DNA of 30,056 nt, from positions 1 through 30,056 of IMG/VR virus record IMGVR_UViG_3300008629_000021, one strand, 5' to 3'. This document shows, in pieces, positions 17,818-20,254 of this stretch. The DNA is from a virus. The number at the start of each line of letters is the position of its first letter. Position 1 is the stretch's first letter. A program made the position numbers and the translations under genes. A model generated the notes under the pieces. The model had not been told where the DNA came from and made no database searches. It saw only the letters and a program-made list of their open reading frames with translations.

Positions 17818-18447
17818 ATGGCTACCAAAAAGAAAAGCGTTTTTGAAGTCCTTAATGCGATAGATGTGAATGAGCATACTGAGCAGAAAGGCAAACTAAC
17901 CTACTTGTCCTGGGCATGGGCTTGGCAGACAACCAAGCAGCATTACCCAGAGGCGTTCTACACGGTGTATGAGAATGAGTTTGGTATGAACTACCACAAC
18001 GACAATCGTACAGCTTGGGTTAAAACTGGGGTTACTATCGAGGGCCTTGAGCATATTGAGTATCTACCTGTTTTGAATTATCAGAACAAGTCTATTCCAA
18101 TTGACTCAATCACCTCTTTTGATATTAACACAGCGATTCAGCGTAGCTTGACAAAGGCAATTGCCCGTCATGGACTTGGCCTATATATCTATGCTGGTGA
18201 GGATTTACCTGACACACCTGTTTGGGATGATGCTGAACAAAAAGATCGCTATGTTGATGCAATCACACAGCACTGTGCTGACCAGGAAGATAAAGAGGCA
18301 GCCAAGCTATATCGTGAGATGGGTGGTCAGAAGAATAAGGTGAGAGGCACAAAACAAACCCAACAGGTTTGGAGTGCGCTTGATCCAGCTACACAGAGAT
18401 ACTTAAAAGCCGCTTTAAGTGGTGAAAAAGAGAAAGTTTCCGCCTAA
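17818..18447 (+). CDS. Sak3/DUF1071-type single-strand annealing protein
   Basis: 209 residues from ATG 17818, preceded by GGAGGAAGTGTA; the longer frame from 17713 only shadows the previous gene. The core FEVLNAIDVNEHTEQKGKLTYLSWAWAW, LPVLNYQNKSIPID, and SFDINTAIQRSLTKAIARHGLGLYIYAGEDLP are hallmarks of DUF1071 proteins, the Sak3 group of phage annealing recombinases. It would anneal complementary strands during replication-linked recombination. No exonuclease partner is recognised next to it, but an SSB-like gene follows, which is the usual functional companion. Strong call on motifs. Confidence 0.88.
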   Translation: MATKKKSVFEVLNAIDVNEHTEQKGKLTYLSWAWAWQTTKQHYPEAFYTVYENEFGMNYHNDNRTAWVKTGVTIEGLEHIEYLPVLNYQNKSIPIDSITSFDINTAIQRSLTKAIARHGLGLYIYAGEDLPDTPVWDDAEQKDRYVDAITQHCADQEDKEAAKLYREMGGQKNKVRGTKQTQQVWSALDPATQRYLKAALSGEKEKVSA

Positions 18448-18481
18448 TTTCTAACGCCTGACTGGGGCGTTTAATACCAGC

Positions 18482-18530
18482 GCGAGTTTGCCTGTACTCG
18501 TTGGTGAAGAACAGGCAATTTTTTAATTTG
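18482..18530 (+). promoter_or_regulatory. Possible H-type pseudoknot or attenuator in the leader of the SSB-like gene
   Basis: Stem 1 is CGAGT (18483-18487) with ACTCG (18496-18500). The 8-base loop between them, TTGCCTGT (18488-18495), is perfectly complementary to ACAGGCAA (18511-18518). The two helices can coexist as a pseudoknot with about 10 bases crossing stem 1. Alternatively the second helix alone, followed by TTTTTT (18519-18524), is a terminator with a 15-base loop. An unstructured AU-rich stretch, AGGAG (18532-18536) and ATG 18543 follow. A separate hairpin AACGCC/GGCGTT lies at 18453-18471. Confidence 0.55.
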
Positions 18531-18542
18531 CAGGAGCAAGAA

Positions 18543-18845
18543 ATGAGTAAGATGGGTATAAACATCTCTATAGATGTAACCAAAATTGATAAAACTAGAT
18601 TGTTTCAAGGAAAAAAAGGAACATACCTAAGTCTAACAACTTTTATTGATTCAGATAATCCTGATCAATATGACAACCACGGCTTTATCAGTCAATCAAC
18701 AGATAAAGAAGAAAGAGAGGCTGGTGTTAAAACTCCGATCCTGGGTAACTGTAAGGTGTTCTTTACAGAGACAAAAGGTGGTGAAAGACACAACGGTGTT
18801 CCAGCTATGGCTCACAACACACCTGAAGACGATATTCCTTGGTAA
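18543..18845 (+). CDS. Single-stranded DNA-binding-like protein
   Basis: 100 residues from ATG 18543 (AGGAG 18532-18536, 6-base spacer); the longer frame from 18501 runs through the leader structure and is rejected. The body has a beta-rich OB-like pattern (INISIDVTKIDKTRLFQGKKGTYLSLTTFID... ILGNCKVFFTETKGG). The very last residues are EDDIPW, closely resembling the acidic DDDIPF tail by which bacterial SSB recruits partners. It directly follows the Sak3-like gene. I infer a phage SSB; the OB fold is not proven. Confidence 0.7.
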   Translation: MSKMGINISIDVTKIDKTRLFQGKKGTYLSLTTFIDSDNPDQYDNHGFISQSTDKEEREAGVKTPILGNCKVFFTETKGGERHNGVPAMAHNTPEDDIPW

Positions 18846-18853
18846 TTAACCTT

Positions 18854-18890
18854 ATATGGCTGACTCATTGGGGGGGTGGGTCGGCCGTAT
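18854..18890 (+). repeat. 14-bp hairpin with seven-guanine loop before the xis-like gene
   Basis: Arms at 18854-18867 and 18877-18890 pair over 14 positions (with G-T pairs), enclosing a 9-base loop TTGGGGGGG. It starts 8 bases after the SSB-like stop and ends 8 bases before ATG 18899, exactly where a ribosome site should be. No T-run follows, so a terminator is unlikely on this strand. Confidence 0.7.
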
Positions 18891-18898
18891 CTTATTAT

Positions 18899-19114
18899 AT
18901 GAAAGAAAAAACAATAAACTTAAATAAAGACTATTTAACCAGTAAAGAAGCGCAGCTATATATGGGTATGTCCCAAACTGGTTTTGATCGCCTAGTTAAG
19001 CGATATAACATTCCATCATCTAGGCCACCAGGTGCAAAGATAGTCTATAGACGTTCTGACTTATCACAGCTTGCAGAGATGTTTTTCGACCAAGAGGCTA
19101 TTCGCCTAGCTTGA
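18899..19114 (+). CDS. xis: Excisionase-like small HTH protein
   Basis: 71 residues from ATG 18899; the longer frame from 18839 would translate the hairpin and is less likely. A winged-helix/MerR-like pattern (DYLTSKEAQLYMGMSQTGFDRLVKRYNIPSSRPPGAKIVYRRSDLSQL) is typical of Xis and AlpA-type proteins. It is convergent with the integrase gene and overlaps its end by 17 bases, so the two messages are antisense to each other there. It probably bends attachment-site DNA for excision. Start lacks a normal ribosome site. Confidence 0.7.
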   Translation: MKEKTINLNKDYLTSKEAQLYMGMSQTGFDRLVKRYNIPSSRPPGAKIVYRRSDLSQLAEMFFDQEAIRLA

Positions 19115-20206: not shown

Positions 20207-20254
20207 TGGTCGGGGCGATAGGATTTGAACCTACGACAACCACACCCCCAGTGT
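20207..20254 (-). other. attP core: 3' half of a tRNA-Pro(GGG)
   Basis: Read on the minus strand, this is the anticodon loop CTGGGGG, the 3' anticodon arm TGTGG, a 5-base variable region, the T-arm GTAGG-TTCAAAT-CCTAT, the acceptor strand CGCCCCG, discriminator A and CCA. The 5' half is missing: no CGGGGCG, D-arm, or complete anticodon stem precedes it. It is therefore a fragment, not a working tRNA. Such 3' tRNA pieces are the typical crossover core by which a phage restores the host tRNA on integration. Confidence 0.85.

What the first reader, a model, noticed from the sequence alone, without database searches (positions are those of the whole stretch)
18482..18545. Pseudoknot-like leader in front of an SSB-like gene, reminiscent of T4 gene 32 autoregulation
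Seen: stem CGAGT/ACTCG (18483-18487, 18496-18500) whose 8-base loop is perfectly complementary to ACAGGCAA at 18511-18518. Both helices can form together as a pseudoknot, followed by an AU-rich single-stranded stretch, AGGAG and ATG 18543. Known: T4 gp32 mRNA has an upstream pseudoknot followed by an unstructured AU-rich region on which gp32 nucleates to repress itself. Inference: this SSB-like protein (tail EDDIPW) may control its own translation the same way. The alternative is a transcription attenuator, since helix 2 is followed by six Ts.
Basis: partly seen in the sequence, partly recalled or inferred. Interest (0 to 1): 0.75.

Follow-up and report, generated by a model that had tools for sequence, protein, structure and literature searches.

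The report
Phage pseudoknot before ssDNA-binding genes
The mRNA just ahead of a putative single-stranded-DNA-binding gene in this marine phage folds into a knotted shape that related phages keep, by paired mutations, ahead of unrelated genes for the same job, so it is a real and apparently undescribed RNA element, though whether it lets the protein switch off its own production, as in phage T4, is unproven.

Summary
The pseudoknot is real. The window's near neighbours are identical or lack the leader, but a homologous element with compensatory changes exists in about 50 other viral contigs. Consensus: GGCRAGGG hairpin, CAAGU/ACUUG stem, its loop paired to a downstream strand, A-rich last loop. 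Rfam, including STAXI, has no match. In seven records (window, L107, L125, L207, L311, L335, L365) the element lies 24-30 nt before the start codon, followed by U6-9 (interrupted in L207), ahead of three non-homologous gene families: canonical SSB (4), a PHROG ssDNA-binding family (2) and the window's orphan DDIPW protein. That fits the T4 gene 32 idea. Against a simple version, sister phages carry the same element at the 3' end of the early operon, not before an SSB gene, and its sequence is conserved in front of unrelated proteins, so the ligand may be a shared factor. Autoregulation, attenuation and other roles remain open. Verdict: a newly seen structured RNA family; interpretation partly supported.

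The parts
17818..18447 (+). sak gene (single-strand annealing protein) upstream of the leader
   Evidence: Pfam PF06378 SSAP_Sak E 5.6e-41, phrog_659 E 5e-62
18453..18471 (+). upstream hairpin AACGCC/GGCGTT, probably the counterpart of hairpin P2 (GGCRAGGG..CCCTTTT) of the relatives
   Evidence: read from sequence; P2 of relatives: RNAalifold and pair counts. The equivalence in the window is inferred; CTGG/CCAG (18463-18466/18477-18480) is a rival pairing.
18476..18505 (+). possible outer extension of stem 1: ACCA 18476-18479 with TGGT 18502-18505
   Evidence: read from sequence; no comparative support in the window's own lineage
18483..18500 (+). pseudoknot stem 1 (S1): CGAGT 18483-18487 / ACTCG 18496-18500
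   Evidence: relatives have CAAGT/ACTTG, i.e. an A-U to G-C compensatory change; L365 has a U-G wobble
18488..18518 (+). pseudoknot stem 2 (S2): TTGCCTGT 18488-18495 / ACAGGCAA 18511-18518
   Evidence: 5 of its 8 pair positions covary across members
18501..18510 (+). loop L3 TTGGTGAAGA, A-rich at its 3' end as in the relatives
18519..18529 (+). U6 run and AU-rich spacer TTTTTTAATTT; U6-9 follows S2 in all leader-class members (interrupted in L207)
18532..18545 (+). Shine-Dalgarno AGGAG (18532-18536) and start codon ATG 18543-18545, 24 nt after S2
   Evidence: spacing 24-30 nt in all leader-class members
18543..18845 (+). 100-aa protein with acidic tail EDDIPW, putative ssDNA-binding protein
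   Evidence: homologues in Vibrio, Marinomonas, Methylophilales and Flavobacterium phages, mostly next to Sak/ERF/Rad52/YqaJ genes; no Pfam, NCBIfam or PDB family; weak match to PHROGs of unknown function; only the D-D-I-P-F/W tail aligns with SSB profiles
18854..18890 (+). terminator-like hairpin after the gene
18902..19114 (+). HTH_17 / excisionase-like gene in the same slot as in L207, L311, L335
   Evidence: PF12728, TIGR01764 weak, synteny

Best explanation
The leader is a member of a so far undescribed family of phage cis-acting RNAs: an H-type pseudoknot (S1 5 bp, S2 6-9 bp, A-rich L3), in most members set in a three-way junction with an upstream hairpin. In the temperate branch to which the window belongs it is the 5' leader of the gene for the phage's ssDNA-binding protein and most likely controls expression of that gene at translation: the knot ends 24-30 nt before the start codon and hands over to a U-rich, unstructured stretch that leads into the ribosome-binding site. 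The likeliest form is feedback as with T4 gp32: once ssDNA is saturated, surplus protein coats the U-rich stretch from the knot downward and blocks ribosomes. Shown: structure, conservation, gene association, spacing. Inferred: control of translation. Not shown: that the protein binds, or that the loop is autogenous.
For: Compensatory changes in S2 (pairs 4-8 take 2-3 types each) and one in S1; the structure beats all 500 shuffles and all slid versions on covariation score. Of the 56 R1 hits examined, all 55 that carry the S1-type core keep 6 or more S2 pairs, although the model holds no S2 pairing and the scan that found most of them asked for only three. A model trained without the window finds it as the window's best hit, E 0.001. 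The element precedes PF00436 SSB genes in L207, L311, L335 and L365, and a PHROG ssDNA-binding gene in L107 and L125; L365 was found through its SSB gene, not through the motif. S2-to-AUG distance 24-30 nt and U6-9 in all leader-class members, interrupted in L207. In L207, L311 and L335 the order [Cro-like HTH]..[element + SSB]..[HTH/Xis]..[convergent integrase] matches the window. The pseudoknot-plus-AU-rich operator of T4 gene 32 is established (PMC535899, PMC3014915).
Against: The same element lies at the 3' end of the early operon in sister phages, with no SSB gene next to it. The core sequence (CAAGU, UGUACUUG, ACA) is conserved ahead of non-homologous proteins, more than a merely structural nucleation site for the downstream protein would need. 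Most homologues of the window protein (L002-L005, L007, Vibrio and Methylophilales phages) have no such leader. The window protein is not shown to bind ssDNA. U6-9 right after S2 also suits a terminator. Nearly all members come from metagenomes; none has been tested.
Confidence: 0.4

Rival explanations
1. Transcription attenuator: S2 followed by U6-9 is an intrinsic terminator between the recombinase gene and the ssDNA-binding gene; S1 and the upstream junction set how efficiently S2 forms while polymerase is at the U-run, so the element limits expression of the downstream genes.
For: A U-run abuts S2 in all seven leader-class members. In the 3'-end class the element lies where an operon terminator is expected and its P2 hairpin is followed by U4-6.
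Against: S2 as a plain hairpin is weak (-7 to -10 kcal/mol) with a 14-15-nt loop and is not called by the terminator scan. 3'-end members mostly lack the U-run after S2 although they keep S1 and S2. Terminators do not need the conserved core sequence. Spacing to the start codon is tight.
Confidence: 0.25
2. A recognition or stability module of early phage transcripts: the structured RNA is bound by a host or phage factor common to these phages, or resists RNases, and acts on the early mRNA whether it lies in an SSB leader or at the operon's 3' end; the SSB association is secondary.
For: One element per record, tandem in L125; strong sequence conservation across unrelated downstream genes; two alternative positions, both just after an early gene; a further conserved hairpin precedes it in the 3'-end class.
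Against: Does not explain why three non-homologous ssDNA-binding or SSB-like gene families follow at a fixed 24-30 nt, nor the U6-9 run special to that class.
Confidence: 0.25
3. The element works as folded single-stranded DNA, for example in replication or recombination, as was once considered for the STAXI motif.
For: One copy per genome near recombination and replication genes; tandem copies in L125.
Against: The geometry (0-2-nt L1 across S2 in nearly all members, 9-10-nt A-rich L3 across S1) works only on the coding-sense strand (inference), which is the sense strand of the early operon in both contexts; the ribosome-site spacing is conserved.
Confidence: 0.05
4. Chance pseudoknot in this genome, with no relation to the family in other phages.
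For: The window member is the most divergent (48-58% identity to other leaders); chance sites picked for the core motif can reach 25 bits with the model.
Against: 0.05 expected per genome, best model hit in 30 kb without training on it, same slot, same U-run, same spacing, compensatory S1 and S2 differences.
Confidence: 0.05

Closest known systems
T4/T2/RB69 gene 32 translational operator
   Different: Unrelated phages and proteins; the spacer is 24-30 nt and led by poly-U (over 40 nt with UUAAA repeats in T4); an extra hairpin and junction lie upstream; the sequence is conserved ahead of non-homologous proteins; a second location exists at operon 3' ends; autoregulation untested.
STAXI motif (Rfam RF01728)
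   Same: Pseudoknot, repeated in tandem, near SSB, integrase and other DNA-handling genes (PMC2864571). L125 has two tandem copies.
   Different: STAXI is reported from Enterobacteriales with two or three repeats and frequent UUCG loops; no STAXI match at or near any element, none in cmscan.
Intrinsic terminators and leader attenuators
   Same: Stem followed by a U-run in the leader class.
   Different: Weak long-loop stem, conserved pseudoknot partner strand and core sequence, no U-run after S2 in most 3'-end members.

Membership tests
T4-type gene 32 autoregulatory operator | Pseudoknot 5' of the SSB start codon supported by comparative evidence | tested here: met
   covariation in S2, one compensatory change in S1
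T4-type gene 32 autoregulatory operator | Unstructured A/U-rich stretch with UUAA(A) repeats between the knot and the ribosome-binding site | tested here: inconclusive
   24-30 nt, 71-89% A/U, led by U6-9; shorter than in T4, no repeated UUAAA
T4-type gene 32 autoregulatory operator | The gene controlled encodes an ssDNA-binding protein | tested here: inconclusive
   Met in relatives (PF00436 in L207, L311, L335, L365; PHROG ssDNA-binding in L107, L125); in the window only tail and context
T4-type gene 32 autoregulatory operator | The SSB protein binds the leader and represses its own translation | not testable with these tools
   Needs binding and reporter assays
T4-type gene 32 autoregulatory operator | Homologous to gene 32 and its leader (same family) | tested here: not met
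   No T4-like phage among the matches of the window protein and no PDB sequence match
STAXI (RF01728) | Match to the Rfam covariance model | tested here: not met
   only a 6.9-bit match far from any element; none
STAXI (RF01728) | Pseudoknot repeated at least twice in tandem | tested here: not met
   Single copy in every record checked except L125 (two)
Intrinsic terminator | Stable GC-rich hairpin with short loop directly followed by a U-run | tested here: inconclusive
   U-run met; stem -7 to -10 kcal/mol with 14-15-nt loop; not called by the scan
Any Rfam 15 family | Match at or near the gathering score | tested here: not met

The most novel reading that the evidence does not exclude
A new family of pseudoknotted phage RNA that has been kept as the leader of the ssDNA-binding gene while the protein itself was exchanged among at least three non-homologous families: an SSB control device of T4 gene 32 type, evolved independently of T4, that works for any ssDNA-binding protein because it relies on generic single-strand coating.
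Probability: 0.3. Interest if true: 0.85.

Novelty: new variant of a known kind. Interest (0 to 1): 0.62.

Why it matters
[quoted passage not shown] A second, unrelated pseudoknot in front of phage ssDNA-binding genes, with natural swaps of the protein behind a conserved leader, would make it directly testable whether such control depends on the particular protein or on generic single-strand coating. Whatever its mechanism, it is a covariation-supported RNA family with no entry in Rfam 15, in marine phages.

Tried and rejected
Direct homologues of the window protein as a source of leader variants: they mostly abut the upstream recombinase gene and have no such leader; the only near relative, L001/L091/L096, is identical over 13.8 kb. 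Genome-contig scan for an SSB-type pattern: five chance hits without S2. Phage collection with two element sequences: only chance matches. AlphaFold of the window protein: mean pLDDT 54; the Foldseek results are meaningless. hhalign of the window family against two SSB families: only the acidic tail aligns. SD sequestration by TTGCCTG pairing with CAGGAGCAA in the window: possible there but not seen in the other leaders looked at, rejected. Minus-strand reading of the 3'-end class: a 0-1-nt loop would have to cross 7 bp of minor groove, rejected. An exact-pattern set biases S1 and the three inner S2 pairs towards conservation, and the first filter asked for S2 of 6 or more; so the covariation claim rests on S2 pairs 4-8 together with the later check of model hits, on P2, and on L365 and the window, which were not found by the pattern. 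Early scans gave mostly chance hits and were filtered by pairing.

Full report
Observation. It is the only such site in the window; whole-genome dinucleotide shuffles give 0.05 per genome. The leader is the 95-nt gap between a sak recombinase gene and a 100-aa protein with tail EDDIPW.

First test, direct homologues. Homologues of the window protein in Vibrio, Methylophilales and marine metagenome phages mostly follow an ERF, Rad52 or YqaJ gene without a gap and have no such leader. L006, L115 and L130 have unrelated leaders. The only close relative is identical over 13.8 kb. So the protein's own family cannot test the structure.

Second test, relatives of the phage. Loci fetched through the terminase contain two (L107, L125) with an analogous leader in the same slot, after an ERF gene and before a different small protein with tail NDSIPF. 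The L125 leader reads CAAGT-C-TAACCTGT-ACTTG-TGCTGAAAA-ACAGGTTA-T7: S1 and S2 both kept through paired changes against the window. L125 has a second copy just upstream.

Third test, the family. Two pattern scans of viral contigs, filtered for pairing, gave over 30 distinct sites. A covariance model without S2 (R1) finds about 50 loci; of the 56 hits examined, all 55 that carry the S1-type core keep S2 of at least 6 bp. Pair counts: S2 pairs 4-8 vary with both sides changing together, P2 likewise at three positions, and covariation exceeds all 500 shuffles and all slid registers. An outer helix P1, GGC(AA)/(TT)GCC, encloses P2 and S1 in all members but the window; it is kept through a double change in L316 (AATC/GATT). 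In the window P1 is not clear. A model trained without the window (R2) still finds it first, E 0.001; chance sites preselected for the core can score as high, so this alone is not proof. The case for the window rests on score, slot, U-run, spacing and paired differences taken together.

Gene association. In L207, L311, L335 and L365 the next gene is a canonical SSB (PF00436; tail DIPF read in the first three); in L107 and L125 it is a PHROG ssDNA-binding family protein. L365 was reached through its SSB gene and only then found to carry the element. L207, L311 and L335 share the window's order: Cro-like HTH, small genes, element with SSB, HTH/Xis-like gene, convergent integrase. In all leader-class members the start codon lies 24-30 nt after S2 and a run of U6-9, interrupted in L207, follows S2. 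The three protein families are not alignable with one another beyond the tail. The window protein itself remains an orphan: no named family, no solved relative, no usable model.

The complication. In most other members the element lies elsewhere. In record G001 (35.6 kb) it sits at the 3' end of one long early operon that contains ERF and the ssDNA-binding gene 5 kb upstream, facing the late genes; about a dozen further loci show the same context (partly cut). There it is preceded by P2 with U4-6 and mostly not followed by a U-run. Each record that has it holds one element (two in tandem in L125), wherever it lies. So the element is not tied to SSB genes as such, and its conserved core suggests a shared ligand.

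Mechanism. Translation control of the ssDNA-binding gene in the leader class is the best reading (0.4), with gp32-like autogeny its likeliest form; attenuation (0.25) and a general early-transcript module (0.25) remain. Steps shown: structure, conservation, association, spacing. Steps inferred: translation control. Not shown: protein binding.

Known relatives. The T4 gene 32 operator works in the way proposed but is not homologous. STAXI, a tandem pseudoknot near SSB genes, was tested and not met. Rfam 15 has no match at the elements. Literature searches found no description of this element in the open library, which does not cover most subscription journals.

Noticed in passing
window 20210-20249 (- strand): 3' half of a tRNA (GGTTCAAATCC..CCA-like end, weak Rfam tRNA match) just upstream of the integrase start: probable attP core; similar tRNA-end matches lie in L107 4774-4933, L335 8539-8668 and L365 5865-5998.
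   Followed up: partly
L311 7688-7796 (+): Cobalamin riboswitch above the Rfam gathering score (38.7 vs 31.5 bits) in a viral contig, in the early region just after the Cro-like gene; L335 4019-4103 has a weak counterpart.
   Followed up: no
L125 3048-3147 (= L336 4484-4618): Two tandem copies of the hairpin-pseudoknot module in one leader; only the second is followed by a U-run and the gene.
   Followed up: yes
L274, L182, L342 and other 3'-end loci, about 20-45 nt before the element: A further hairpin GTTGAT-gtgggtatgtaca-ATCAAC with paired variants GTTAAT/ATTAAC and TTTGAT/ATCAAA and a nearly invariant loop; not seen in the leader class. Could be an operator or part of the RNA.
   Followed up: partly
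window 18854-18890: Long terminator-like hairpin with a run of seven G right after the DDIPW gene, just before the HTH/Xis-like gene.
   Followed up: no
window 18528-18539: TTGC-AGGA-GCAA mini-hairpin holds the Shine-Dalgarno in its loop; not seen in the other leaders.
   Followed up: partly
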